A stretch of DNA of 62,860 bases from Allorhizocola rhizosphaerae (GTDB lineage Bacteria > Actinomycetota > Actinomycetes > Mycobacteriales > Micromonosporaceae), in NCBI RefSeq assembly GCF_003426775.1, contig NZ_QJUG01000010.1, positions 1 to 62,860 on the forward strand. The letters are read 5' to 3'. The position numbers and the translations under genes were made by a program. The notes beneath the pieces are model-generated. The model was not told where the DNA came from. It saw nothing but the letters and a program-made list of their open reading frames with translations, and made no database searches. Positions 10,803 to 39,651 of the stretch are shown piece by piece. How positions within the stretch are numbered: the first letter of the stretch is position 1; every line of letters starts with the position of its first letter.

Positions 10803-12194
10803 TCACTTGCGGGGGGCCGCCTTGACCGTCGTCACTCGGCTGGCGTCGGCTGACTGACGCTGGTGCTCAGAGGAGCCGCTAGGGGTTGCTGCCAGTATCT
10901 GCTGCATGCCTTCCTGGCAGTATCGACCCAGCAGCTCGGGGTCGTCGACCTGTGCCGGATCGATATTCATCATGACATAGCAGGTCCCGCCATACGAAAC
11001 GGTCGTTGCCGTCATGACGTTGCCGTTGGTGGGCGCGATTCCGTACGCGCGCACGGCGGGTACTCCGGCGATGTCAGCCGGGCGGTTCGGGCCAGGGATG
11101 TAGGTCAGCACGAAGTCGTGCGACGCACAGAAATCGCGGAAGCCGCGGTCCAGTACTGAGCTTGGCACTAGCGCGCCACAGCGTGACAGAAACCGCATCC
11201 AATCGAATGCATCGCGACGGTATACCGTTCTGACCGCGGACCGTATCGCCTTTATCCGCTCGAGGGGATCGCTGACGATGCCCGGGAGCCTGAAGCGCAC
11301 CAAGAACCAGTGGTTGCCGGACGGTGCCGGGTCGTCGGCCTGACTTTCAGGTGGACGACCGAAGGGGCAGAGCACGCGCATGGTTGGACGATGGGTTCCG
11401 TGGGCGACGTTGTAACGGTGGAAGCCTTCTGCGATGGCAGCCATCAGTCCATCCTGAACCGTGCCGCCGACGCTCCCTGCAGCAGCTTTGAGCTTCTCCA
11501 GCGGAACCTGCATGGTCACGTAGTGGCGCTTGATGCCGTCGGAGGTCCCCTTCGGCAGTTTGGGGCGGTCGGCGGCATCCTGAGCAAACTGTGTGACGAA
11601 GGAGAGCACCGCCCGCGCGCGCCGTGCCGCACTGGCGGCATCCCACTGCCGGCGTTTGCGCCCATCATGCTGTTTCATGGGCCCGCCGCCGCCGGCGTGA
11701 GGGTGCACGGTGGTCATCTCGCGCGCCAGCAGCCGCCGTAGCCGCAGGCCGTCGGCGATGCTGTGCGAAACCTTCAGGAGGTAAGCTGACCGGCCGTTCT
11801 CCAGACCCTCGATAACATACGCCTCCCAAGGAGGGCGGTGGTCGACCAGAGGTGTTTGCCCTATCTTTTCGACCGTGTCGAGTAGTTCCCGCTCGGTGCC
11901 GGGCCCAGGCAGGGCGATGTGACGAAGGTGCTGGCTCGGATCGAAGAGCGGGTCCTCTCGCCAGTACGGCGCAAGGAATGCGGGACGGCGGTGAGTCACT
12001 CGCGACTTCAGACGTGGCAAGAGCTCCGCTGCCTCCGCGTGCCACGCGATCAGCCGCTCCCAGTCGACCTTGCCGTCAAGTATGACGACCAGCGTTATCC
12101 ACGGGTAGACCGACGTCACCGTCTCTAGGCGCCAGAAAATGCGGTCCTGTGCACTCAGGAGATCCCGCCGTCGCTGCCTTTCCTTCGTCGTCAT
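10803..12194 (-). CDS. WS/DGAT-type O-acyltransferase
   Basis: A 463-aa protein of the wax ester synthase/diacylglycerol acyltransferase family, which joins acyl-CoA to a long-chain alcohol or diacylglycerol to make storage lipid. The active-site HHxxxDG appears as SHSIADG: the catalytic His (residue 144), Asp148 and Gly149 are kept, but the first His is Ser. Downstream, GTVQDGLMAAIA and the C-terminal block around FVLTYIPGPNRP also fit the family. The ATG at 12194 has AGGGGA at good spacing; an upstream extension has no such site. It is divergent from the isoprenoid locus, so it could acylate a terpenoid alcohol rather than diacylglycerol; that is inference from position. Confidence 0.85.
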   Translation of the reverse strand: MTTKERQRRRDLLSAQDRIFWRLETVTSVYPWITLVVILDGKVDWERLIAWHAEAAELLPRLKSRVTHRRPAFLAPYWREDPLFDPSQHLRHIALPGPGTERELLDTVEKIGQTPLVDHRPPWEAYVIEGLENGRSAYLLKVSHSIADGLRLRRLLAREMTTVHPHAGGGGPMKQHDGRKRRQWDAASAARRARAVLSFVTQFAQDAADRPKLPKGTSDGIKRHYVTMQVPLEKLKAAAGSVGGTVQDGLMAAIAEGFHRYNVAHGTHRPTMRVLCPFGRPPESQADDPAPSGNHWFLVRFRLPGIVSDPLERIKAIRSAVRTVYRRDAFDWMRFLSRCGALVPSSVLDRGFRDFCASHDFVLTYIPGPNRPADIAGVPAVRAYGIAPTNGNVMTATTVSYGGTCYVMMNIDPAQVDDPELLGRYCQEGMQQILAATPSGSSEHQRQSADASRVTTVKAAPRK

Positions 12195-12780
12195 TTCGTT
12201 TCCCCTGACTATAGTGAGCCCTTCTCGAAGCCTCAGCTGCAGGCCGATCGCCTCGGCGACCGGGCGCGATCCGGCGTTCCGGAAGGCCGGGCGCGATCGT
12301 GCCCCTGCGGGATCGGATCCGTGCCCTTCGGCATCGACATGTGAGCATGTGGCTCCTATGCACTCAGAGTGCCGCCTGGCGTTCGTTCCTCCCAGCAAAA
12401 GCGCCCGCAAGGGCGATAAACAGTGGCCGGCTGTTAATCGGTGACTCGGCCCGCCATAACGTGATCGCCAATGCGCGCCGTTCTCGTTCTCCGGCGGATC
12501 GCCACCCGATGCGGGCGCCTGCTTGGTTGAGAAGTTGGCTTCGCAGCAAGGATTAACCGATGCAGCACGTTTAACACATCGAGCCGATGGTGTCCTTGGT
12601 TCGTATCGTGATTGTCGGATCTAATCGATTCAGCGATCGGCACGGAGACCGGATCAGTGCGCTGTCGGCCGGTCGGCACTTGATCCTCGCCGGCAGTGGA
12701 CGACGCAGTGCTCGTTGGACGGCAGCAGGACGATGCCGCAAACCGGTGGCTTGTTCACCGCCGAATCTGTCAATGGGACC
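12195..12780. other. Divergent intergenic region before the isoprenoid locus
   Basis: About 590 bases separate the leftward acyltransferase from the first rightward ORF. No convincing gene lies here; the small frames on both strands lack ribosome binding sites and domains. Promoters for the acyltransferase and for the dxs transcript are expected here, but no obvious operator palindrome was found. Confidence 0.45.
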
Positions 12781-12942
12781 ATGAATATGACCACAAGTGC
12801 GGTACTGGAACGTATTGGATCATGGGCGCCAGACCATCGAGTCGCCAATGTGGACCTTGCGGAGAGCTTGAACGTCACCCCGATTGGATCGTCGATCGCA
12901 CCGGAACTTCATCCAGGGCAGGTTGGGCAAATTTCGTTCTAG
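12781..12942 (+). CDS. Possible 53-aa leader ORF upstream of dxs
   Basis: ATG at 12781 opens a 53-codon frame beginning MNMTTSAVLERIGSW and ending HPGQVGQISF, 19 bases before dxs. A weak GGGA precedes the ATG. The composition is balanced, not the Arg/Pro-rich pattern of shadow frames, and the stop falls just before the dxs ribosome binding site. It could be a translated leader, a small partner peptide or chance. I recognise no family. Confidence 0.35.
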   Translation: MNMTTSAVLERIGSWAPDHRVANVDLAESLNVTPIGSSIAPELHPGQVGQISF

Positions 12943-12961
12943 TAGAGGAGGCGGGACGCCG

Positions 12962-14737
12962 ATGATCGACACGCTGAATGTACTGTCCGCGCTCGACGGG
13001 CCTGCCGAGTTGCGAGAGCTGTCCCATGACGCGCTGCAGGAGCTGGCCGCGGACATCCGCGCTGAGTTGGTGGAGCAGGTGACCCGCACCGGCGGGCATC
13101 TGGGCCCCAACCTGGGCACGGTGGAGTTGTGTATCGCGCTGCACCGCGTGTTCGACTCACCTGACGAGCCCATCATATTCGACACCGGCCATCAGGCATA
13201 TCCCCACAAGATGCTTACCGGCCGGGCGGGCGAATTCAGGCGGCTGCGCCAGGCCGGAGGACTGTCGGGCTATCCCAGCCGGGCCGAGTCGATCCACGAC
13301 GTCGTGGAGAACTCGCACGCCTCCACCGCGCTGGCCTACGCCGACGGCATCGCCCGAGCCCGCAGTCTGCGTGGCGATCTACGGCCAGTCGTGGCCGTGA
13401 TCGGCGACGGCGCTATGACCGGCGGCCTGGCCTGGGAAGGATTGAACAACATCTCCGACCGAGTACCCCGCCGCCTCGTCGTGGTGCTCAATGACAACGG
13501 CCGCTCCTACGCGCCGACCATCGGCGGTTTCGCCGCCCACCTGGGCGATTTGGCCGGGCGACGGCGCCGGCTCGACGCCTTCGCCCGCGCCGACGGCAAT
13601 ATCTTCACCAGTCTCGGCCTGGGCTACATCGGACCCGTTGACGGTCACGACGTGGGCGCCGTCGAGTCTGCGCTGCGCCGCGCGCGGGCTTGCGCCATAC
13701 CGACGGTCGTGCACTGCCTCACCGTCAAAGGCAAGGGTTACCACCCGGCTGAACGGGACACCGCTGACTGCATGCACGGTGTCAGCTCACAGGGGGCGCC
13801 CAGCGCTCCTGCCGCTACAAGTTGGACAGATGTGTTCTCCTCCGCCCTAGTGGGCCTCGGCGCAACGAATCAGCAGCTGGTCTGCCTGACCGCCGCGATG
13901 CTGCGTCCGGTAGGACTGGCCGCTTTCGCCGACCGGTTCCCCGACCGCGTCGTGGACGTCGGTATGGCCGAACAACACGCCGCCGCCTGCGCTGCTGGAT
14001 TCGCCTACGCTGGGATGCACCCGGTCGTCGCGATCTACTCTACGTTTCTCAACCGCGCGTTTGACCAGGTGCTCATGGACGTCGCTCTGCATCAGGCGCC
14101 GGTCACCTTCGTGCTCGACCGGGCCGGTATCACCGGCGACGACGGCCCGAGCCACCACGGCATGTGGGATCTAGCCCTGTTTGCCAAGGTGCCTGGCCTG
14201 CGCATCGCCGCCCCCCGCGATGCGCGACGCCTACGTGAGCAGCTCGCCGAGGCGATCACGTTCAACGGGCCGACCCTCATCCGTTTCCCCAAGGGCACCA
14301 TCCCAGACGAGTTGCCTAACCTACGGTACCTGCCCGGAGTCTCCATCCTCCATGGAGACGTCACCGGTGATGTGTTGATCGTGGCGGTTGGTGGGATGGC
14401 CGCGGCCTGCGTGGAGGCTCAACGACACCTGGACAGGCTGCAAGTTACGGTAGTCGATCCGGAATGGGTCGTGCCCGTCGCGCCAGCGCTGCTATCTTTG
14501 GCCAGAAAGCATCGAGCCGTGGTGGTGGTTGAGGACGGTATTCGTGACGGCGGCGTCGGCGACGCGATCACGCGAACCATGCACGACAACGGCCTTCATA
14601 TGCCGATGCGCACCTTGGGCTTGCCAAGGCGGTTCATCAGCCATGGCTCCCGATCTGACCTTCTGGCCGAATACGGTCTGACCGCGGCCGGAATCGCGGA
14701 GTCTGTCATGGACCTGTGTCACCGGAGCCTGAAATGA
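12962..14737 (+). CDS. dxs: 1-deoxy-D-xylulose-5-phosphate synthase
   Basis: A 591-aa thiamine diphosphate enzyme that condenses pyruvate and glyceraldehyde 3-phosphate to DXP, the entry step of the MEP isoprenoid pathway. Visible family marks are [11 protein letters not shown] near residue 75, the ThDP-binding GDGAMTGG followed by GLNNI, and in the second half [17 protein letters not shown] with the catalytic Glu. It is slightly shorter than the usual ~630 residues. The ATG at 12962 follows a strong AGAGGAGG; a 26-residue in-frame extension is less likely. The stop overlaps the ispG start (ATGA), so the two are translationally coupled. Its place with ispG and a prenyltransferase marks it as a dedicated precursor-supply copy. 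Confidence 0.95.
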
Positions 14738-15897
14738 CGATCGTCCAATTGGGACCGCCCACCGTCCCGCCACCCGCTTTGTCGAAACGCCGTCACAGCC
14801 GTCAAATCCAGGTGGGCCGGATACCGGTTGGCGGCGGGGCACCCATCTCCCTGCAGTCAATGACGACCACCTTGACCGCCGATGTGAATTCAACACTGCA
14901 GCAGATCGCCGAGCTAGCCACCTCAGGCTGCCAGATCGTGCGCGTCGCCGTGCCGTCGCAGGACGACGTGTCGGCACTGCACGCGATCGCGCGCAAGTCG
15001 CCGATCCCGGTAATCGCCGACATCCATTTCCAGCCCAAGTACGTCTTCGCCGCAATCGACGCAGGCTGTGCCGCGGTCCGGGTGAATCCGGGCAACATCA
15101 AGCGATTCGACGACAAGATTAAGGAGATCGCTCAGGCGGCGACTGCGGCGAAAGTCCCGATCCGCATCGGTGTCAACGCGGGCTCGCTGGACAGGCGGAT
15201 TCTCGACAAGTACGGCAAGCCCTCGGCGGAGGCTCTCGTCGAGTCGGCGTTGTGGGAATGCTCACTTTTCGAGGAGCACGGTTTCCGCGACATCAAAATC
15301 TCGGTCAAGCATCACGACCCCGTGGTCATGATTCGGGCGTACCGTCTGCTGGCGCAACAGTGCGACTACCCGCTCCACCTCGGGGTGACGGAGGCGGGCC
15401 CCGCCTTCCAAGGCACGATCAAGTCCGCCGTCGCGTTTGGGGCGTTACTGGCCGAGGGGATCGGCGACACGATCCGCGTCTCCCTATCTGCGCCACCGGT
15501 CGAGGAAGTCAAGGTCGGAAACGCCATCCTCGAGTCGTTGGGGCTCAAGGAACGTAGCCTGGAAATCGTGTCCTGCCCCTCCTGCGGCCGGGCACAGGTG
15601 GATGTCTACGCCCTGACCGAGCAGGTTACCGCTGCGCTTGAAGGATTCCCCGTGCCGCTGCGCGTAGCGGTCATGGGCTGTGTGGTGAATGGGCCAGGGG
15701 AGGCACGCGAGGCCGACCTCGGTGTCGCGTCCGGCAATGGCAAAGGGCAAATCTTCGTCAAAGGTCGCGTGATCAAGACAGTACCCGAATCACAGATCGT
15801 CGAAACCCTCGTCGAAGAAGCCTCGAAGATCGCCGAAGCAGCGGGTGTCAACATCGGCGATGACACACCACACATCCCTGAGAGCATGGCGGCATAG
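14734..15897 (+). CDS. ispG: 4-hydroxy-3-methylbut-2-enyl diphosphate synthase
   Basis: A 387-aa [4Fe-4S] enzyme (GcpE) converting ME-cPP to HMBPP, the penultimate MEP step. The N-terminal TIM barrel shows [19 protein letters not shown] and VRVNPGNIK; the C-terminal cluster domain has SCPSCGR (Cys281, Cys284) and GCVVNGPGE (Cys316, Glu323), the expected cluster ligands. The ATG at 14734 overlaps the dxs stop, so an upstream in-frame start is unlikely. It is the intact copy; a decayed second copy lies two genes downstream. Confidence 0.95.
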
Positions 15898-16019
15898 GGA
15901 TTAGGTCCTCGCCTCATGGATGCCGGGAAAGCGTTCGTGGCCCGCGGAGCCGGCCGAATCGCATGTGGCGATGTGTCGCGGCATGCAGTATCTCCGCGGG
16001 AAGGAGGAGGACACAGGTC

Positions 16020-16124
16020 ATGTTCGCACCCGCGCGAGCAGGCTTGTCGCGTTGGGATGGTGACGACTCCGTGAGGTCGTGTATGCCGAGTTTCGCAGAG
16101 TCGGTGCAGGTAACGAACCAGTAG
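16020..16124 (+). CDS. Possible 34-aa ORF before the prenyltransferase
   Basis: The gap between ispG and the prenyltransferase (15898-16235) contains one short frame of 34 codons (MFAPARAGLSRW ... ESVQVTNQ) with an excellent ribosome binding site, AAGGAGGAGG, nine bases before the ATG. Strong translation signals with no other gene to serve argue that something is translated here. No family is recognised, and it could be a leader peptide. The rest of the gap shows nothing. Confidence 0.35.
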   Translation: MFAPARAGLSRWDGDDSVRSCMPSFAESVQVTNQ

Positions 16125-16235
16125 AAAAGTCGGGTATTGGCCATGGAGGGTGTGTTCCGTCGTGTGGAAAGACGCCTTGTCCAGGCGCACGAGGGATGCG
16201 ATTCTCCTTGCACTGCCGGCGATGCGGAGGTTGTC

Positions 16236-17309
16236 GTGGACGGAATTGCGTTGCGAGAGGGCATCGGGCTGTCAGTGCCGGAACAGGTCGATCTTGTCCT
16301 CGCCGAGTTTTTGGCCGCGAAGACTGCTGACGGCGATCTGGCTGAGCTCGACGTGATGCTCGCATTGGTCAAAGAATTCGTTTTGGGCGCTGGAAAGCGG
16401 TTGCGGCCACGGTTGTGCTATTGGGGCTGGCGGGGCGCAGGGGGCGCCGATTGCCGGGAAATTGTCGCCGTCGCCGCGGCCCTGGAGCTTTTTCATGCCT
16501 TCGCCCTGATCCAGGACGATGTCATGGACTGCAGCGACTCCCGCCGGGGCAGGCCGACACTGCACCGGCGGTTCGAGCGGCTGCATACCGATCGGGGATG
16601 GCGTGGCTCCAGCGTCAGATTCGGTATGTCCACCGCAGTTCTCGCCGGAGACCTGTGCACGATGTGGGCCGACGAACAGCTGCATGGATCGGGGTTCGAC
16701 GCGGAAACCCTCTCTGCCGGACTGCCGATCTATCACCTGATGCGCGACGAGGTGATTGCCGGACAATACCTGGATCTCCTCGAACAGTCGCGAGGACCCC
16801 TATCGGTCTCAGCGGCTCTGAACGTCATCAGGTACAAGACGGCAAGGTACACCGTGCAGGGCCCGTTGCAGCTCGGTGGAGCTCTGGCCGGAGCCGGGCC
16901 GCAGCTGCTGGAGGCATATTCCGCGTTTGCCCTGCCGTTGGGTGAGGCGTTTCAGCTGCAGGACGATCTCCTGGGGGTCTTCGGCGATCCGGCCGTCATC
17001 GGAAAGTCCACTGTGGACGACCTACGAGAGGGCAAGTCGACCGTATTGGCTGCGCACACGCTGGCCCGGTCCAGCGCACCGCAGCGGAGGCGGTTTCTGG
17101 CTCTTTTCGGCCGGTCCGGACTGGATGCTGACGGCGTCACCGAGCTGCGCCAGATGATGGAGCACTCCGGCGCCCGTCGGGTCGTCGAGCAGATGATCGC
17201 TGCGCGGACAGCCCGGGCGCTGAAGGTCCTGGAGTCGATGCCGATCTGTCCGGAGGCTTCAGCAGCGCTCCGCGAGCTCGCGATCGACCTGACCGCAAGA
17301 GCGCGGTGA
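16236..17309 (+). CDS. Polyprenyl diphosphate synthase, probably GGPP synthase
   Basis: A 357-aa trans-prenyltransferase that condenses IPP with allylic diphosphates. The first Asp-rich motif is DDVMD (residues 94-98) and the second is DDLLGVFGD (from 243); GKRLRPRL and the KTARYT Lys region are also present. Phe at the fifth position before the first motif (FALIQDD) fits enzymes that stop at C20, so geranylgeranyl diphosphate is the likely product; that is inference. I chose the GTG at 16236, five bases after GGAGG. Alternatives are ATG 16143 and TTG 16137, which would add an unlike N-terminus. It is the third enzyme of the isoprenoid locus. Confidence 0.88.
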   Translation: MDGIALREGIGLSVPEQVDLVLAEFLAAKTADGDLAELDVMLALVKEFVLGAGKRLRPRLCYWGWRGAGGADCREIVAVAAALELFHAFALIQDDVMDCSDSRRGRPTLHRRFERLHTDRGWRGSSVRFGMSTAVLAGDLCTMWADEQLHGSGFDAETLSAGLPIYHLMRDEVIAGQYLDLLEQSRGPLSVSAALNVIRYKTARYTVQGPLQLGGALAGAGPQLLEAYSAFALPLGEAFQLQDDLLGVFGDPAVIGKSTVDDLREGKSTVLAAHTLARSSAPQRRRFLALFGRSGLDADGVTELRQMMEHSGARRVVEQMIAARTARALKVLESMPICPEASAALRELAIDLTARAR

Positions 17310-17417
17310 GGGGAAGGGTCCTGCCGGTGATCGAGAGGCCCGTTCCACGGCATCCGCACACCTATTGGCCGCAGATGCGAAACAACACGATGGGCTCGGC
17401 TTGTGCAACCGCACATC

Positions 17418-17787
17418 ATGACTCAGGCGTTAGCCGAGCGATATGCCTCCGTGATCCCCGACATCCACTTTCTGTCCCCGCTATGTGTTTGCCGCCATCG
17501 ACGCCGGGTGAGCGGCCGTCCGCGTCAACCCGGGCAACATTGCAGCCTTGTCGAAGGTTCCTCACCCTCTGCCCGTCGCCGTCGCGGGATGCGTCGTCAA
17601 CGGACCTGGCGAAGGCCAGACCTTTGTTAAAGGCAAGACTGTCGCCGCTGTGCCCGAATTCCGCATCGTCGAGACGCTCAGAGAGGAGGCATTGAAGATC
17701 ACCGGGAAACCCGGTTTGCCCCCCCGAGCCGGACAACCCAAAGCATCAACTCCCTCAGACGCAAGAACACAAGAGGCTATGCCATGA
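17418..17787 (+). pseudogene. Decayed second ispG copy
   Basis: Between the prenyltransferase and the 550-aa gene, stretches match IspG. The frame near 17450 reads VIPDIHF, then in another frame YVFAAIDAG, a TGA and [10 protein letters not shown]. After a jump that would remove ~190 residues, [25 protein letters not shown] and [14 protein letters not shown] follow in one frame to 17787. A frameshift, a stop and two deletions leave no functional enzyme. The remnant differs from the intact neighbour at many positions, so it is a diverged paralogue, not a fresh duplication. The C-terminal 79-codon frame stays open. Confidence 0.85.
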
Positions 17788-18001
17788 CCAGCGGGTCATC
17801 GAGATTCCAGATATCGATCCCGTATCCAGCGTCGCATCGACGATTTCCGGGCGGCCGAACAACCTGGCCAACGTGCTCGACACCTCTCGCCGTCATCGGT
17901 GCGGCATGCGCCGCCACAAGCGCATGTGGTCGACACTACTGTGCCTGGATGATCTGCGCGGACTTGTGGCAGCACCAGAACTCCCGCGGAAAGGCAAGGA
18001 C

Positions 18002-19654
18002 ATGAATGACACCGTTTCCACATTCGCTGAACTGATCCGGACGAACGTTCGTCCTTGCAGCCGAAGGTACCTGGAACGTGAAAAGGCCGGTAACGCTCGC
18101 CTGACCGCTGCGAGCGACGGGACCGGTTCACCGCTTCGGGAGTCGATTTTCTTCAGAGGCGTCCTGAACTATCCCGCCAGAGCGCTCATGCCTCCGGACG
18201 AGCAAGGGCAGGCCCGCCTGCATGATCTGGACAGGCACCTGGCCTCGATCCAGCGCGTCTTCCCGAACACGTCCACCGACGCGCTGATGTGCAGACTCGC
18301 ATGCGAGTTGCTGGAATCAGCCTGGCGCGAGCGAGCCGAGGCCGGGCGTGCAGGGATGGAAGCGCCCGCTGGCTGTGCATGCCGTCTTTGCACGCATCTG
18401 CCAACTCCACGCCAGCGCCGTCTCGAAGATTACGACTGGCGGAAGAGCAGTGGTGCACCGCTCACGGTCAAGACATGGCCTTACAGGCAGGAACTCGACA
18501 GCGTCCTGTGCGGCGGATGGGTATGGACCAGGAAGATGAACGATTCCGACCAAGATATCGGCCTCCGATACCGGTACGAGGACGACATTCTCGTCTTCCA
18601 GGAGTACAAGCGCGTTGCGAAGTCCATCGATATCGAAAGTCTCCACCAAAAGGTCGGAGAAGAGTCGACACGCCAGGCTTCTTCGAACGGCTCTCGTGCA
18701 CTGGTGAGCGGACTCTTCTCCACATTCAAGCGCAGCGTGGATGAATACTGGCTCGCTCATCACGCCTCCGGTTTCGTCACGCTCCCGCAGGCCAATCCAT
18801 TCGACAAGCAGACTTATGCGCTATTACAGATCCTCGACTGCCTGTTCTGGCACGTGCCGCCTGATGACGAGCTGTGGCAGGAGGCAAATCTCGCCTCGCT
18901 GATCCTGTGCCGTGTGCTGGACGACATGACCGACACCCGAGCGGACGCCGTCACGGGCGAGATCAGCAACTTCTGGCTCAGCTCCATGTCCACGCACGAC
19001 AAGGCCATGTACGCCGCGTGCGCCATCGCACTCGTCAAATATGGGTGTATGCCCGAAGCGCATAGTGTCCTGTGGAACACCTGGCTGATGGATACCACCA
19101 TCGTCTGGATGGCTCTCACCGGCCGCCACGCACTGTGGTTCGACGGCATTATCGACGAGCTGCGTCCGGTTCGTGACTGCCCGCTCTGCGGTATCGAGCC
19201 GAATAGCGGTGCCGGGCTCCTCTCCGGCGGCGTCACCCTGAAATTCGGGCCTCAGATCCGTGCGAACAGTCTGTGCCGGCAGGCCCGCCGGCTCTCGGAG
19301 CAGTGCCGCGCGCACGCACCCGACGTCTGGCCTCTCTTCGAGCGGGAGCTTGCGGCATTCGAGGCGATTCATGGCGAATGGCATGGTGACCACGAGACGA
19401 CCTGGGAGATTCTCAGCCGCACCTACGTAGCAGGAGTCGAAGCGTGCCTGGCCGGAGGCAAAGGCGCGCCCGAGGTCCAAAACGATGCCGGTGCCGTGGG
19501 AACGGAACTCTTCCACGCACTGAACGCCCCTCCGACCTGGAAGGAGGACACGGCCCTCCTTGCCTACATGTTCGGCTGCGCACACCCCCATTTCCTCTGG
19601 AACTGCGTGGGCTACAGCGGCGGCGCAGTCGCCGGCGACGCACTCGACGGCTGA
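18002..19654 (+). CDS. Unrecognised 550-aa protein with DDxxD-like motif; candidate terpene cyclase
   Basis: A soluble, helix-rich protein of 550 residues that I cannot place in a known family. Residues 307-311 read DDMTD in the context LCRVLDDMTDTRAD, resembling the DDxxD diphosphate-Mg motif of class I terpene synthases. The N-terminus (residues 2-10) reads NDTVSTFAE, which fits NDxxSxxxE but lies on the wrong side of DDMTD. Cys clusters CACRLC (125-130) and CPLC (393-396) could bind a metal. At 550 residues it is longer than usual class I bacterial enzymes (~330). Its place after dxs, ispG and a GGPP-synthase-type gene makes terpene formation the best guess. The ATG at 18002 has a GGAAAGG site; 17873 is a less likely start. 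Leu275 is a rare TTA codon (18824). Confidence 0.75.
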   Translation: MNDTVSTFAELIRTNVRPCSRRYLEREKAGNARLTAASDGTGSPLRESIFFRGVLNYPARALMPPDEQGQARLHDLDRHLASIQRVFPNTSTDALMCRLACELLESAWRERAEAGRAGMEAPAGCACRLCTHLPTPRQRRLEDYDWRKSSGAPLTVKTWPYRQELDSVLCGGWVWTRKMNDSDQDIGLRYRYEDDILVFQEYKRVAKSIDIESLHQKVGEESTRQASSNGSRALVSGLFSTFKRSVDEYWLAHHASGFVTLPQANPFDKQTYALLQILDCLFWHVPPDDELWQEANLASLILCRVLDDMTDTRADAVTGEISNFWLSSMSTHDKAMYAACAIALVKYGCMPEAHSVLWNTWLMDTTIVWMALTGRHALWFDGIIDELRPVRDCPLCGIEPNSGAGLLSGGVTLKFGPQIRANSLCRQARRLSEQCRAHAPDVWPLFERELAAFEAIHGEWHGDHETTWEILSRTYVAGVEACLAGGKGAPEVQNDAGAVGTELFHALNAPPTWKEDTALLAYMFGCAHPHFLWNCVGYSGGAVAGDALDG

Positions 19655-19827
19655 CGGCAGCAGGAGCGGAGTCATGACGCGCAGACACAGCCGAGCAGAA
19701 TCCTCGGACCACATTGTCATAGGCGCCGAGTCCGTGCCAGACAGACGATCGCTGCGAGCGCCGCGGTCGTTGGCGCGACGTCGGCCGCCACTTGCAAACC
19801 AGCTGGGCGGGAGAGAGGAGATGATCG

Positions 19828-20754
19828 GTGACGCCGGGCCCGGTCATTTGGTTGTCTGCATATGGATTTCAGTTGGCGTTCCCTTGGCTGGTGCGCCTGT
19901 TTCTCTCGTCGCCTGCGATGGAGTTTGCCACCAGGCCGATTGCCGAGCCGGAGACCATTCTGGTGCCTACACGGCATGGTCCGATCAAATCGTTGATTCT
20001 CCGGCCGCCGCCTGACCTCGTGACCGAGTGGTCGCGCCAGGGCCGATTGCCACCGGTACACGTGCAAATCGCCGGCGGCGCGTTCATCGGGCGGTATCCC
20101 GAGCTCGAAGCCAATGTGGGCCGCTATCTGGCCTCGGAAGTCGGCTGCTGCGTGGTCCTGCCCGGTTATCGCACAGCGCCGCAAGCGTCCTTTCCCGTGG
20201 CGGAGCAGCAGATACACGACGTGGTTCAGTGGTTGCACGGTAACGGCGCCTTATGTGGATGGGACGGCGATCACTTGTCGGTTGGCGGAGGGAGCGCGGG
20301 TGGTAAGTTGGCGCTTAATGCGGTGCAGCAAGCAATAGACGCGGCCGCATTCGTTCCTCTGGCTCTCACTGTTGAATACGCCTTGTGCGATGTGGCGTTG
20401 ACCGACGAGTTCTGGTGCAGCCTAAAGCGCAGTTCCTACATCAGACCGTGGATGCTGCGGTTGATGCGGAGCGCATATTTCACCGACCGGATGCGGTTGG
20501 TCGAACCGCTGGCTTCGCCCGCGCGGTACGACCGGCTTACCGAGTTTCCACCGACACTGATCACCACGGGTGGACTGGACATCCTGCACACGGAGATGGA
20601 CCGTCTGGCCGCACGTCTCGCGGCAGAAGGAGTGACCGTCACACACCACCGGTTTGAGTCGGCGGACCATGGTTACACCCATATGCGACCGATCGAGACA
20701 GCGGCTCAGGCCATTTTCATGATTGGCCAGCATTTGAGGAGATGGGTGGTCTAG
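19828..20754 (+). CDS. Alpha/beta hydrolase, HSL type
   Basis: A 308-aa hydrolase of the hormone-sensitive-lipase type, usually esterases acting on small lipids or steroid-like esters. The triad is visible: Ser156 in GGGSAGG, Asp251 in GGLDILH and His281 in SADHGYTH. The oxyanion HGGG of the family is altered to IAGGAF (residues 81-86), so the leading His is missing. A hydrophobic N-terminal stretch (residues 5-28) may touch the membrane. The GTG at 19828 follows GAGAGGAG. A rare TTA codon encodes Leu142. In this locus it may cleave an ester or diphosphate-derived intermediate; the substrate is unknown. Confidence 0.85.
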   Translation: MTPGPVIWLSAYGFQLAFPWLVRLFLSSPAMEFATRPIAEPETILVPTRHGPIKSLILRPPPDLVTEWSRQGRLPPVHVQIAGGAFIGRYPELEANVGRYLASEVGCCVVLPGYRTAPQASFPVAEQQIHDVVQWLHGNGALCGWDGDHLSVGGGSAGGKLALNAVQQAIDAAAFVPLALTVEYALCDVALTDEFWCSLKRSSYIRPWMLRLMRSAYFTDRMRLVEPLASPARYDRLTEFPPTLITTGGLDILHTEMDRLAARLAAEGVTVTHHRFESADHGYTHMRPIETAAQAIFMIGQHLRRWVV

Positions 20755-20990
20755 GGCGGTCCGCCCCTCCACACAATCGGTCTTCGTCGGTGGAGTGGAC
20801 ACAGGTGGAAAATTTAACATCCAAGCCCATTGCGGTACTTGCTCGGGCGGGCCATCGGATGGTCGCCTTGAGGGGGCACGGTCGATTGACGGGCCGGTGC
20901 CGGTGGCGCGCAGCCAAAGTATGTCTCAGGCGGCAGATCCGTATGAGACACGATGCGGCACACGCTACGGGTTCAGCGAACGGAAATGAC

Positions 20991-21113
20991 ATGGATGGCG
21001 TGAACCACCCCGGCTCTGACGCTCCTGCGTCGGAAGTGACCGAGGCCATTATTCGGTTACCCGTACGGCCCAAGGTGTTCCACACGACCGCATCCGAAGG
21101 AGCGCAGACATGA
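20991..21113 (+). CDS. Possible 40-aa ORF coupled to the UbiB-like gene
   Basis: A 40-codon frame (MDGVNHPGSDAPASEV ... TTASEGAQT) ends exactly over the start of the UbiB-like gene in an ATGA overlap, the arrangement used for translational coupling. The ribosome binding site is weak. It has no recognised domain. The ATGA overlap is the main support; the preceding 20755-20990 holds nothing recognisable. Confidence 0.4.
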   Translation: MDGVNHPGSDAPASEVTEAIIRLPVRPKVFHTTASEGAQT

Positions 21114-22624
21114 CGCGCGGTCGCTTGATCACGGTGACGAGGGTGTTCACCTCCCTACTCGCCGATGAGGCCGGCCACACCGCATCGGCTCTTGGCGGCC
21201 GGGCCGCAGGAGCCGGCGCGGCGGCTCGACGGGCCGAGGCAGCGCGCATGGCCCTGGAACGGCTCGGCCCCTTCTGGGTCAAGGTCGGGCAAATTATGTC
21301 CACACGATCCGACTTCGTGCCATTGCACATGAGAAAGGAGTTCGAAAAGCTTCACGACGAGGTCGGTGTGGCGCCTTTCTCGATATTCGAACCACAATTG
21401 GAGGCAGAGCTGGGTCAGGGCTGGCGCCGGATGTTTCGTGAGGTGCACACCGCCGAACCCCTGGGATCGGCGTCGCTGGCACAGGTCTACCGAGTCGTCC
21501 TTGCCAATGGGCAACACGGCGTGCTGAAGCTCCAACGGCCCGATATCCGGGAGATGGTGCTCGCGGACATGCGCTTGTTTCGCCGCGGAGCACGAGTGGT
21601 GCGCAGATGTGCCCCCCGGTTCAACGCCGTCATCGATATCGAGGCCATGCTGAATGTGGTGTTCGAGGCGATGGAGGCGGAGCTGGACTTCACCGTGGAA
21701 GCCGCCAACATGGAGCAGGGCCGACGGCTTGCGGAGCGGTTCGAATCGATCAGCGTGCCACAGGTCTACCTCGCCACGCCGAAGGTACTGGTGCAAAGCC
21801 AGGCGCCGGGGTGTTCCATTCGAGATGTCGGCAAGGGCGGCCTCCCGGACGATCAGCGGTTGGCGATCGGCCGGGATCTGCTCCGATTCATGTACCACGG
21901 GTACTACCTCGAGCGCATGTTCCACGCGGATCCTCATCCGGGCAACATCTTCGTGCAGAAAGGCGAGCAAGCCACGCTCATCGACTGGGGTCTGGTTGGC
22001 AGGGTGGACCGGCCCACCAGCCGCGACGCCCTCCGCATCCTGATGCATGTCGCGGGCAACGACGGCAGCGGAGCGGCACGTGCCTGGCTGGAGCTGGGAC
22101 GAGCCACACCATGGGCCGACATCGCCGGATTCTGCGGCGACATAGCCGCCCTGGTACCCAAGCTGACCGACGCGTCGCTTGATCAACTAAACTTCGGTGT
22201 CACCCTCACCTCGGTGATGAAATGCTCCGCCCGCCGGGGTATCAAGACGAGTCCCATGATCTCCTTACTGGCAAGGTCCTTTTCCACCCTGGAAGGGTCG
22301 ATTCGCTGCATCGCCCCCGAACTGACCGTGACGGAGGTGCTCCGCGAGGACATCTGTGACATCATGTGCCATCTCGTCGGCGAAACGATTTCGCATACCA
22401 AGGCCGCCTCAGACGTTCTCGAGGCGATCGCCATAGCGCACAGCGCACCCGAGCAACTGCGCAGCATCGTGCGCGATGTCGCCAATCGCGACCTGTCGAT
22501 CCAGATAAGCCGAGCCCCGCCCAGCGTTCCAGGGGCGATGGCGCCCGTGCTTCCCTTGGCGGCAGGGTTGGGACTCGTCGCGCTGATCCTGCATCACCGA
22601 CGCAAGATGCAAGGTAACAGATGA
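21110..22624 (+). CDS. ABC1/UbiB-family atypical kinase
   Basis: A 504-aa member of the ABC1/UbiB/AarF family. Known members bind ATP and help move or use hydrophobic isoprenoid quinone precursors at membranes. Seen here: the KxGQ motif (KVGQ, residues 58-61), the Ala-rich loop variant GSASLAQVY (119-127), Lys140, the catalytic HADPHPGN (272-279) and DWG in place of DFG (Asp292). The C-terminus ends with a hydrophobic helix (PLAAGLGLVALIL) and basic residues, a likely membrane anchor. Leu386 is a TTA codon. In a locus that makes a long isoprenoid, a role in extracting or presenting a lipophilic substrate is attractive inference. Confidence 0.9.
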   Translation: MTRGRLITVTRVFTSLLADEAGHTASALGGRAAGAGAAARRAEAARMALERLGPFWVKVGQIMSTRSDFVPLHMRKEFEKLHDEVGVAPFSIFEPQLEAELGQGWRRMFREVHTAEPLGSASLAQVYRVVLANGQHGVLKLQRPDIREMVLADMRLFRRGARVVRRCAPRFNAVIDIEAMLNVVFEAMEAELDFTVEAANMEQGRRLAERFESISVPQVYLATPKVLVQSQAPGCSIRDVGKGGLPDDQRLAIGRDLLRFMYHGYYLERMFHADPHPGNIFVQKGEQATLIDWGLVGRVDRPTSRDALRILMHVAGNDGSGAARAWLELGRATPWADIAGFCGDIAALVPKLTDASLDQLNFGVTLTSVMKCSARRGIKTSPMISLLARSFSTLEGSIRCIAPELTVTEVLREDICDIMCHLVGETISHTKAASDVLEAIAIAHSAPEQLRSIVRDVANRDLSIQISRAPPSVPGAMAPVLPLAAGLGLVALILHHRRKMQGNR

Positions 22625-22769
22625 ACGGCTCGGCGACTTAACACCGTAGCCACCTTAACAACTGCAATGACTCAAGCCATTGGGTTATGGGCCGATATCG
22701 GGTGTGAGTCGACGCAGTGACACTGCACCGAACAGTGCGCAAACACAAAGACGCAGGAGGATGATTTTC

Positions 22770-23150
22770 ATGTCTCGCCGCAGTGGCATCAGCAGTTACC
22801 TGGGCGACGTCGCCGACGATACGAAGGAGTTCGTGGACAGTCTCCTGGACCGGGTATCCGACCTTGACCGCGAGCTGCGGCAAGCTGCGCGGCGTGCGCT
22901 CGACAACCAGAAGGACCGCGATAAGCGGGTTGCCGACATGAGAGACGAGGTGCGGCGGCTGTCCCGTCAGCTCCAGGAGCTCGATGATTCGGGCCCTGAC
23001 GAGGGTACGGGTGGCGGTTCAGAATCCCACAGCGGCATATCCGAGCAGATCGACGCGCTGAGATCGGAGATGAGGACGCTGTCGAAGGCGCTGGAGGATT
23101 TCGCCGCGCGCGGGCCAGGCTCGGCGACTTCCGGCAAGACATCGACCTAA
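22770..23150 (+). CDS. Coiled-coil phasin-like protein
   Basis: A 126-aa hydrophilic protein. Residues ~5-70 form a long amphipathic helix or coiled coil (DDTKEFVDSLLDRVSDLDRE ... RDEVRRLSRQLQEL), then a Gly/Asp linker and a second short helix. No enzyme motif is present. The ATG at 22770 follows AGGAGG at nine bases. The shape recalls phasins, the small helical proteins that coat storage-granule surfaces. The next gene looks like the DNA-binding part of a granule regulator, which supports this. The assignment is by shape and neighbourhood, not sequence identity. Confidence 0.7.
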   Translation: MSRRSGISSYLGDVADDTKEFVDSLLDRVSDLDRELRQAARRALDNQKDRDKRVADMRDEVRRLSRQLQELDDSGPDEGTGGGSESHSGISEQIDALRSEMRTLSKALEDFAARGPGSATSGKTST

Positions 23151-23163
23151 GGGAGCCAAGCCC

Positions 23164-23541
23164 ATGCGTCGCGACGGCACGCATCCTGCACGGCCGGCCG
23201 GTGGGCGTCGCCTCTTTCGCGAGGAGCCCGACGGGAACCTGTACGACCTCGACAAACGTTGCCTTGTCAGTCCCACGGAACTCGGTGATGCGCTGGCGGC
23301 CGGCGCCACGTTCAGGGCCTACCGGCACGACACGGGTGCGGACTGCACCTATGAGATTCTGTTGAAGCTCTTGGCGTTGCATCCGCTGACGGCGATTGGA
23401 GCCGGCTCACGTGAGCTGATTACCACGGACGCAGCGGTCGAGGCGTCGGTGCAGCGGGCAGTTCTCGGACGGCCTATGCGTTCGGGACGCACGCGGTTCC
23501 CGGCCGATCGGAGCGACGCTGATGGTGGTTGGGCGTATTGA
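23164..23541 (+). CDS. PhaR-N-like protein (polyhydroxyalkanoate regulator DNA-binding domain)
   Basis: A 125-aa protein whose residues ~14-70 resemble the N-terminal domain of PHA-accumulation regulators: RRLFREEPDGNLYDLDKR, then LVSPTELGDALAAG and YEILLKLLA, matching the family pattern of an NRRLYD-like start and an ILLQII-like end. In known PhaR proteins this domain binds DNA and the granule. The C-terminal half is unlike PhaR. It starts 13 bases after the phasin-like gene and ends the locus. The motif fit is moderate; a search against PF07879 would decide. Confidence 0.6.
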   Translation: MRRDGTHPARPAGGRRLFREEPDGNLYDLDKRCLVSPTELGDALAAGATFRAYRHDTGADCTYEILLKLLALHPLTAIGAGSRELITTDAAVEASVQRAVLGRPMRSGRTRFPADRSDADGGWAY

Positions 23542-38973: not shown

Positions 38974-39651
38974 ATGATGAGGCGTTCTCCGCTCCGATCG
39001 ATCCAGGCGGCCGCAGTTGCCGCGGCTTTGGCCGTCAGCACATTGACGGGCAGTGCGGCTTTCGGCATGGGCGCCGCCGCGTTGGCACGGCCGGCCGGTG
39101 TGCTGATGGCAACCGATGCCGATGGGCGCGCCGTGCAGATCGGTAAGGCTGTGACCTCCGACGGCAGACCGCGGCTTGGCGTGCAAGTGACGAGCAACCT
39201 CGTGGCCGCGCACAGCGGCAGGTGCCTAGACGTGACCGGCGGCACAGATGCCACCGGCAACGGTGTGCCGGTACAGCAGTACGACTGCCTGGGCAGCGCC
39301 CAGACGAACCAGGTCTGGAGTTTTGAGAACGAGACCGTCGTCGGCGGCGACTACTACTACAACATCGTCGCGGCGCACAGCGGTAAATGTCTCGACGTGA
39401 CCGGTGGCAACGGCGCGACCGGTAACGGCGTGCCGGTACAGCAGTACGACTGCCTCGGTCCCGCCGCGGCCAATCAGCAGTGGCGGATGGTCGTCTTCAA
39501 GGTCAAGCTGCAGCTCGTCGCCCGGCACAGCGGTAAGTGTCTCGACGTGACCGGTGGCGACGGCGCGACCGGTAACGGCGTGTCGGTACAGCAGTACGAC
39601 TGCCTCGGCCTCAGTCAGTCCAACCAAATGTGGTACCGGTTCAGGCCGTGA
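38974..39651 (+). CDS. Secreted ricin-B-type (CBM13) lectin
   Basis: A 225-aa secreted protein. A signal peptide (MMRRSPLRSIQ ... ALAVSTLTGSAAFG) precedes a beta-trefoil built of three ~45-residue repeats, each with HSGKCLDVTGG, GNGVPVQQYDCLG and a QxW-like end (NQVW, NQQW, NQMW). Each repeat can bind a sugar; the shared D, Q and W residues are kept in all three. It has no catalytic domain, so it is a stand-alone lectin or lost its partner. Start: ATG 38974 follows AGGGGC; ATG 38950 is an alternative with GAGGTGGG. A terminator follows at 39661. Confidence 0.9.
   Translation: MMRRSPLRSIQAAAVAAALAVSTLTGSAAFGMGAAALARPAGVLMATDADGRAVQIGKAVTSDGRPRLGVQVTSNLVAAHSGRCLDVTGGTDATGNGVPVQQYDCLGSAQTNQVWSFENETVVGGDYYYNIVAAHSGKCLDVTGGNGATGNGVPVQQYDCLGPAAANQQWRMVVFKVKLQLVARHSGKCLDVTGGDGATGNGVSVQQYDCLGLSQSNQMWYRFRP

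What the first reader, a model, noticed from the sequence alone, without database searches (positions are those of the whole stretch)
12781..23541. Isoprenoid locus ending in a non-canonical terpene-like enzyme and lipid-handling genes
dxs, ispG and a GGPP-synthase-type prenyltransferase lead to a 550-aa protein outside the terpene-synthase families that I know, then an HSL hydrolase, a UbiB-like kinase, a phasin-like coiled coil and a PhaR-N-like protein. A divergent WS/DGAT acyltransferase lies left. Supply, cyclisation, esterification or cleavage and granule storage could be one pathway to an unknown lipophilic terpenoid. The gene order and motifs are seen; the pathway is inference.
Basis: partly seen in the sequence, partly recalled or inferred. 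Interest (0 to 1): 0.82.

Follow-up and report, generated by a model that had tools for sequence, protein, structure and literature searches.

The report
Probable hidden terpene synthase family
A bacterium related to the antibiotic-producing actinomycetes carries a protein that the sequence databases searched do not recognise, and in relatives the same protein sits where ordinary terpene-making enzymes can sit, so it is probably an unrecognised kind of terpene-making enzyme that can be tested directly.

Summary
The 550-aa protein (18002-19654, here TERP) has no Pfam, NCBIfam or PDB-sequence match, singly or as a 27-member family. Its upstream neighbours are dxs, an extra ispG and an E-prenyl diphosphate synthase. 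In Actinomadura rudentiformis (75% identity) TERP lies beside mevalonate-pathway genes, a P450, a class I terpene synthase and a GMC oxidoreductase. In Streptomyces (30 of 392 genomes) it adjoins a conservon plus P450 in 24 of 25 loci examined; 9 of 40 canonical terpene-synthase loci have such a unit, 0 of 40 random regions. At one orthologous site most lineages hold TERP, two genomes hold a canonical class I synthase; a second conservon lineage shows a similar exchange. An NSE-like motif, [ND]DMxDxRxDxxTGExxN, fits 27 of 27 members. Best reading: a non-canonical terpene synthase. Fold and chemistry are unproven: both AlphaFold runs failed and profile comparison found nothing. HSL, UbiB, coiled-coil, 'PhaR' and WS/DGAT have no counterpart in 26 relatives' loci, so the storage pathway is unsupported. 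Three non-canonical classes (ID-IF) were published in 2024; identity with IE or IF is not excluded.

The parts
18002..19654 (+). TERP: 550-aa orphan protein, proposed non-canonical terpene synthase
   Evidence: No Pfam/NCBIfam/PDB-sequence match singly or as family; 75% identical homologue in A. rudentiformis, 54-60% in Streptomyces
18920..18970 (+). Codons for residues 307-323, NSE/DTE-like motif DDMTDTRADAVTGEISN
   Evidence: D308, D311, R313, D315, G319, E320, N323 invariant in 27 of 27; residue 307 is D in 19, N in 8
16137..17309 (+). E-prenyl diphosphate synthase (FPP or GGPP type, chain length not assigned)
   Evidence: PF00348 4.7e-48; all listed NCBIfam chain-length models below cut-off
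14716..15897 (+). ispG, second full copy in this genome
   Evidence: PF04551 5.7e-142; other full copy on contig C323
12884..14737 (+). dxs (whether the genome has another copy was not searched)
   Evidence: TIGR00204 above cut-off
17451..17718 (+). decayed ispG remnant between prenyl synthase and TERP
   Evidence: blastn to the window's ispG: 77% over 90 columns with one gap and 73% over 55 bp; tblastn pieces 3.7e-7 and 2.3e-12
19828..20754 (+). HSL-type alpha/beta hydrolase; neighbour, not conserved with TERP
   Evidence: PF07859 8.3e-39; no match in the relatives' loci
21110..22624 (+). ABC1/UbiB-type kinase; neighbour, not conserved with TERP
   Evidence: PF03109 3.3e-50; no match in the relatives' loci; 51% relative in Streptomyces G303 without TERP
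22680..23150 (+). coiled-coil protein; phasin label not supported
   Evidence: TIGR01837 17.9 bits against cut-off 94.7
23164..23541 (+). small protein; PhaR label not supported
   Evidence: PF07879 E 0.031, under cut-off; no relative in 199 other genomes of the family
10803..12410 (-). divergent WS/DGAT acyltransferase, opposite strand; no evidence that it belongs
   Evidence: PF03007 2.3e-40; no match in the relatives' loci

Best explanation
TERP is a non-canonical terpene synthase (working like class I): it binds a prenyl diphosphate made by the adjacent E-prenyl diphosphate synthase through Mg2+ held by the [ND]DMxDxRxDxxTGExxN motif, expels diphosphate and cyclises or rearranges the cation; a P450 or other oxidase then decorates the product in species that have one. 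In the window, dxs and an extra ispG raise precursor supply; in Actinomadura a mevalonate gene set does so. Shown: gene context, absence of recognisable homology, family-wide conservation of the motif, exchange with canonical terpene synthases at an orthologous locus. Inferred: enzymatic activity, class I mechanism, metal binding, the substrate (FPP or GGPP, undecided) and the product.
For: (1) In the window: dxs, extra ispG and prenyl synthase upstream on the same strand. (2) In A. rudentiformis L002: HMG-CoA synthase, HMG-CoA reductase, an FMN_dh-family protein (IDI2-like by my reading), diphosphomevalonate decarboxylase, P450, class I terpene synthase, TERP, GMC oxidoreductase. The two supply routes are not homologous, so their presence beside TERP is not simple co-inheritance (inference). 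(3) Conservon plus P450 after cvnD: 24 of 25 Streptomyces TERP loci, 9 of 40 single-domain terpene-synthase loci, 0 of 40 random 14-kb regions; Fisher one-sided p 0.0012 for 9/40 against 0/40. (4) P450 tree of 33 rows: canonical-TS loci L153 and L159 group with 16 clade-2 TERP loci (97/92); TERP locus L006 groups with canonical-TS loci L161 and L163 (100/99). CvnA of L153 is 81% identical to that of TERP locus L041, which is 79% identical to that of TERP locus L035. (5) Same chromosomal site: 6 of 16 flank ORF families of the TERP loci occur beside the canonical TS in L159 (G468) and L216 (G473) at 72-88% identity, and in 0 of 40 random regions. Neither genome has a TERP match. (6) That canonical TS is the sister, in this sample of 39, of the TS lying next to TERP in Actinomadura (100/100). 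(7) Extended NSE-like motif: 27 of 27 TERP, 24 of 39 canonical single-domain TS, 1 of 459 neighbour genes (itself a TS), 0 of 449 genes of random regions.
Against: No DDxxD about 141 residues upstream (E164 and D166 are invariant there); the only DDxxD is the motif itself, in 19 of 27. Position 5 of the NSE triad is D, not S/T/G, and my motif pattern was widened to D after seeing TERP; the register is found in 0 of 73 geosmin-type domains. hhalign gives 0.1-0.2% against terpene-synthase and phytoene-synthase profiles, no better than 12 decoys (0.1-0.4%); but terpene synthase against phytoene synthase, which share a fold (recalled), gives only 3.2%. AlphaFold: mean pLDDT 43 and 38. Invariant cysteines (125, 127, 130, 393, 396) are, as far as I recall, unusual for a terpene synthase. 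In the 25 Streptomyces loci no match to the window's prenyl synthase, dxs or ispG or to the Actinomadura mevalonate genes lies within the fetched stretch. The shared flank at the exchange site is on the TERP side only: in G473 the flank families found beyond the conservon in TERP loci (c5, c8, c11) were not found, and in G468 the contig ends. In 7 of 24 TERP loci the gene is on the cvnA side, not in the slot.
Confidence: 0.68

Rival explanations
1. TERP is a tailoring or accessory enzyme of terpenoid pathways (for example a metal-dependent oxygenase or isomerase, or a protein that handles a terpene), acting on a terpene made by a canonical synthase encoded nearby or elsewhere.
For: In Actinomadura TERP lies right next to a canonical terpene synthase, P450 and GMC oxidoreductase; invariant His and Cys residues could bind a metal. 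The window's genome has canonical synthases on other contigs, so a substrate could come in trans.
Against: No match to a canonical synthase in the 25 Streptomyces loci (tblastn with one query, which found 38 of the 40 known synthase loci) or in the window, and at an orthologous site TERP and the synthase replace each other instead of standing together.
Confidence: 0.17
2. TERP is an accessory of the conservon signalling system (a sensor or modulator like CvnE or CvnF), not a biosynthetic enzyme.
For: 24 of 25 Streptomyces TERP genes adjoin a conservon; accessory CvnE P450s and CvnF GAF proteins are known, and CvnF8 stimulates its kinase (PMC13343842, abstract and passages).
Against: The window and its closest relative L002 have no match to CvnA-D (tblastn E 1e-4) and are isoprenoid loci; canonical terpene synthases take the same slot.
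Confidence: 0.07
3. TERP is a member of a non-canonical class already published (class IE or IF, or types 2-4 of the same study).
For: That study mined hypothetical proteins of Streptomyces, Mycobacterium and Nocardia for class I-like folds and found class IE with 823 homologues (PMC11234867, whole main text).
Against: It required a prenyl synthase within 10 genes; no match to the window's one is in the fetched stretch (about 8-10 kb a side) of the 25 Streptomyces TERP loci. Class ID's RxxKD is absent from 26 of 27. TERP is narrow: 2 of 396 genomes of the phylum sample, one of them the window's own.
Confidence: 0.08

Closest known systems
Canonical bacterial class I terpene synthases (PF19086; nearest context: relatives of PDB 6q4s, listed as pentalenene synthase)
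   Same: Genomic slot beside P450 and conservon, NSE-like motif with the G-[DE]-x-x-N tail, isoprenoid context
   Different: No detectable sequence or profile similarity, 550 aa, no DDxxD upstream, D at the S/T position
Non-canonical terpene synthases, classes IB, IC, ID, IE, IF (PMC11234867, whole main text)
   Same: Unrecognisable by sequence; Asp/Asn motifs; several homologues near P450s, as that paper states
   Different: Class IB motifs absent, class ID RxxKD in 1 of 27; IC, IE and IF sequences were not compared
Conservon (cvnA-D) with cvnE P450 (PMC8510531, PMC13343842; passages)
   Same: The Streptomyces TERP loci contain this unit
   Different: TERP is not among the Cvn components named in the passages that I saw; searches for conservon with terpene words gave 0 papers and 3 listings off the subject by title and abstract start

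Membership tests
Canonical class I terpene synthase | Match to PF19086/PF03936 or NCBIfam terpene synthase models | tested here: not met
   0 of 27 members match any terpene model at E up to 10 (HMMER's filters drop most weak hits)
Canonical class I terpene synthase | DDxxD (or DDxxxD/E) about 140 residues before the NSE motif | tested here: not met
   Only DDxxD is at column 307, in 19 of 27; DDxxxD/E in 0 of 27
Canonical class I terpene synthase | NSE/DTE motif (N,D)Dxx(S,T,G)xxxE | tested here: inconclusive
   [ND]DxxDxxxD with GExxN tail in 27 of 27; D in place of S/T and of E
Canonical class I terpene synthase | All-alpha class I terpene synthase fold | tested here: inconclusive
   Models mostly helical but pLDDT 43 and 38; Foldseek on the first found nothing at E below 3.6
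Canonical class I terpene synthase | Converts a prenyl diphosphate to a terpene | not testable with these tools
   Needs an enzyme assay
Class ID non-canonical terpene synthase | D(N/D), ND and RxxKD motifs | tested here: not met
   RxxKD in 1 of 27, not in the window protein (motifs)
Class IB terpene synthase | DYLDNLxD and DY(F,L,W)IDxxED | tested here: not met
   0 of 27 for both (the first searched as DYLDN; motifs)
Class IE/IF or types 2-4 of PMC11234867 | Sequence similarity to the published members | not testable with these tools
Class II terpene cyclase | DxDD motif | tested here: not met
   0 of 27
PHA granule proteins (phasin, PhaR) | Score above the curated cut-off | tested here: not met
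   TIGR01837 17.9 against 94.7; PF07879 14.8 against 25

The most novel reading that the evidence does not exclude
TERP founds a separate class of terpene synthase, with no recognisable similarity to any described one, which has repeatedly exchanged places with canonical class I synthases beside a conservon/P450 unit, so that a G-protein-like signalling operon is wired to terpenoid production by either of two unrelated enzymes.
Probability: 0.5. Interest if true: 0.8.

Novelty: new variant of a known kind. Interest (0 to 1): 0.62.

Why it matters
Terpene synthases are normally found by sequence models; a family that evades the models searched here, in about 8% of sampled Streptomyces genomes (30 of 392), would be a source of unseen terpenoids, and the exchange with canonical enzymes at one locus gives an unusually direct prediction of its function. 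The same comparison shows that conservons, whose signalling is described as poorly understood (PMC13343842, abstract), are often near terpene synthases (9 of 40 against 0 of 40), a link that I did not find described.

Tried and rejected
The second model was not searched. Profile-profile comparison with terpene synthases, phytoene synthases and 12 decoys: no signal, and the control shows that the method is weak at this depth. Viral contigs and plasmids: no relative. A first version of the motif test used 73 geosmin-type domains and found the register in 0; the later set of 39 single-domain enzymes gave 24; both are reported. Pathway to storage granules: rejected for lack of conservation and sub-threshold labels. 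Class II cyclase: rejected, no DxDD. For the conservon test I chose by hand 40 of the listed PF19086 matches with open frames that looked single-domain; six of these regions are shorter than 13.2 kb at contig ends or by request; the 40 random regions come from 10 Streptomyces genomes only. After the filing check I ran to test statements that had rested on less; it bore them out.
Full report
What is there. On the plus strand the window has dxs (12884-14737), ispG (14716-15897), an E-prenyl diphosphate synthase (16137-17309), a 550-aa protein, called TERP here (18002-19654), an HSL-type hydrolase, an ABC1/UbiB-type kinase, a coiled-coil protein and a small protein ending at 23541; a divergent WS/DGAT lies at 10803-12410 on the other strand. 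The labels phasin and PhaR-N fall below their curated cut-offs, and the prenyl synthase matches no listed chain-length model above its cut-off, so 'GGPP' is not established. The genome has a second full ispG on another contig, so the window's copy is an extra one; dxs copies were not searched.

TERP is an orphan by sequence. Its 27-member family matches nothing in Pfam or NCBIfam at E up to 10 except weak hits, each in 1 of 27 members (best E 0.13). Against solved structures the single protein gives E 0.77 at best, the 9-row profile 0.25, the 27-row profile nothing. Relatives: 8 loci in a close-relative scan of 84,980 species' genomes (one Actinomadura rudentiformis at 75%, seven Streptomyces at 58-60%), 30 of 392 Streptomyces genomes (one of them only a 164-residue piece), 2 of 396 genomes of the phylum sample, one of them the window's own, and 1 of 350 of its own family, which is itself. 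The narrow, scattered distribution suggests horizontal transfer (inference).

Context 1, isoprenoid supply. In A. rudentiformis (L002) the homologue stands in the order P450, class I terpene synthase (PF19086 2.8e-45; nearest solved chain 6q4s, listed as pentalenene synthase, 9e-85), TERP, GMC oxidoreductase, with HMG-CoA synthase, HMG-CoA reductase, an FMN_dh-family protein (IDI2-like by my reading) and diphosphomevalonate decarboxylase within 10 kb. The window offers MEP-pathway genes in the corresponding role. Two unrelated precursor routes beside the same orphan gene are better explained by a need for isoprenoid precursors than by inherited linkage (inference). The 25 Streptomyces loci have neither in the fetched stretch.

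Context 2, conservon and P450. In Streptomyces the gene adjoins a conservon (cvnA sensor kinase, cvnB roadblock, cvnC, cvnD GTPase) with a P450 following cvnD, in 24 of 25 loci; L040 is the exception. TERP is always on the opposite strand to the conservon: in 17 of 24 it converges on the P450, in 7 it diverges from cvnA. Conservons with cvnE-type P450s are known (PMC13343842 and PMC8510531, passages). I fetched 40 canonical single-domain terpene-synthase loci from Streptomyces and relatives and 40 random 14-kb regions from 10 Streptomyces genomes: 9 of 40 and 0 of 40 have a full conservon, each of the 9 with the P450 (Fisher one-sided p 0.0012). In 7 of the 9 the synthase converges on the P450, as in the 17 TERP loci; L160 and L162 have it on the same strand, further off (coordinates). 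The window and L002 have no match to CvnA-D.

Exchange at one locus. In a tree of the 33 cvnD-adjacent P450s the canonical-synthase loci L153 and L159 fall with the 16 clade-2 TERP loci (97/92), and the TERP locus L006 falls with the canonical-synthase loci L161 and L163 (100/99). CvnA of L153 is 81% identical to that of TERP locus L041, as close as two TERP loci are to each other (79%). Of 16 ORF families found in the flanks of at least five TERP loci, six are also beside the canonical synthase in G468 (L159) and G473 (L216) at 72-88% identity, and none in the 40 random regions; one of the six (c19) overlaps another (c18) on the opposite strand, so they may be five genes. Of the other synthase loci searched the same way, only L167 had one hit (c15, 54%). 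The shared flank is the TERP side only: families beyond the conservon (c5, c8, c11) were not found in G473, and the G468 contig ends at the conservon. In G473 the synthase fills the slot between the nearest flank gene (c7, glyoxalase-like by my reading) and the P450, with gaps of about 330 and 250 bp. Neither genome has a TERP match. For L006 only the conservon and P450 are shared with L161 and L163, not the further flanks. The canonical synthase of L153 and L159 is, in a tree of 39 enzymes, the sister of the one beside TERP in Actinomadura (100/100). Either an ancestral cluster held both and each lineage kept one, or one replaced the other; in both cases the two seem able to fill the same role (inference). 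A TERP that only modified a synthase's product should not be kept where the synthase is missing, unless the substrate comes from elsewhere in the genome.

Active-site clue. Residues 307-323 read [ND]DMxDxRxDxxTGExxN; D308, D311, R313, D315, G319, E320 and N323 are invariant in 27 of 27, and 307 is D (19) or N (8). The spacing i, i+4, i+8 and the N/D alternation are those of the NSE/DTE metal motif (recalled), and 24 of 39 single-domain synthases show the same tail, against 1 of 459 neighbour genes (the L002 synthase) and 0 of 449 genes of random regions; with G required in the tail it is 9 of 39. Against it: I allowed D at position 5 because TERP has it; the core motif without the tail arises in 9% of shuffles and in 16 of 459 neighbour genes; and the register is absent from 73 geosmin-type domains. 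No DDxxD lies upstream. Five invariant cysteines (125, 127, 130, 393, 396) are unexplained.

Fold. hhalign found no relation to terpene or phytoene synthases (0.1-0.2%; 12 decoys 0.1-0.4%), but two families that share that fold (recalled) score only 3.2% against each other here, so this negative is weak.

HSL, UbiB, coiled coil, 'PhaR' and WS/DGAT, and also dxs, ispG and the prenyl synthase, have no tblastn match in the 28 fetched stretches (26 distinct loci) around TERP relatives. At E 1e-60 the UbiB protein has a relative in 2 of 296 genomes of the phylum sample, its own and one Streptomyces (49-51%), in a stretch without TERP; in its own family 198 of 200 genomes have some more distant relative. 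A storage pathway is therefore not supported.

What is known. Non-canonical class I-type terpene synthases are an established idea: classes IB and IC, and ID, IE and IF, proposed in 2024 after structural mining (PMC11234867, whole main text). TERP lacks the IB motifs and, but for one chance case in 27, the ID motif RxxKD. IC, IE, IF and the types 2-4 without detected activity could not be compared. A search with the class and enzyme names found only that paper; a search for conservon plus terpene gave three listings, none on this subject by title and abstract start.

Verdict. A probable non-canonical terpene synthase family (0.68), new at least to the family libraries examined. The context evidence is strong; chemistry and fold are untested.

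Noticed in passing
window 17451-17718: Decayed ispG remnant (77% and 73% identical stretches) between the prenyl synthase and TERP: an older cluster copy or a rearrangement.
   Followed up: partly
L153, L159-L163, L167, L169, L174: Canonical class I terpene synthases have a conservon with P450 near them in 9 of 40 loci against 0 of 40 random regions: a possible general link of conservons to terpenoids.
   Followed up: partly
L223/L224 (unnamed Streptomyces G303): Upstream of a 49-51% relative of the window's UbiB lies a gene whose start resembles the window's coiled-coil protein by eye, though tblastn at 1e-3 gave no match; UbiB plus a small coiled coil may be a unit of its own.
   Followed up: partly
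G678 C1 887947-888138: A second, broken TERP fragment (model positions 489-552, one TAG) about 3 kb from a full copy: perhaps tandem duplication and decay.
   Followed up: no
window 18002-19654, residues 125-130 and 393-396: CxCxxC and CxxC cysteines invariant in 27 of 27: possible structural metal site.
   Followed up: no
window 39195-39609: Direct DNA repeats of 77-81% identity (264 and 96 bp), unrelated to the finding.
   Followed up: no
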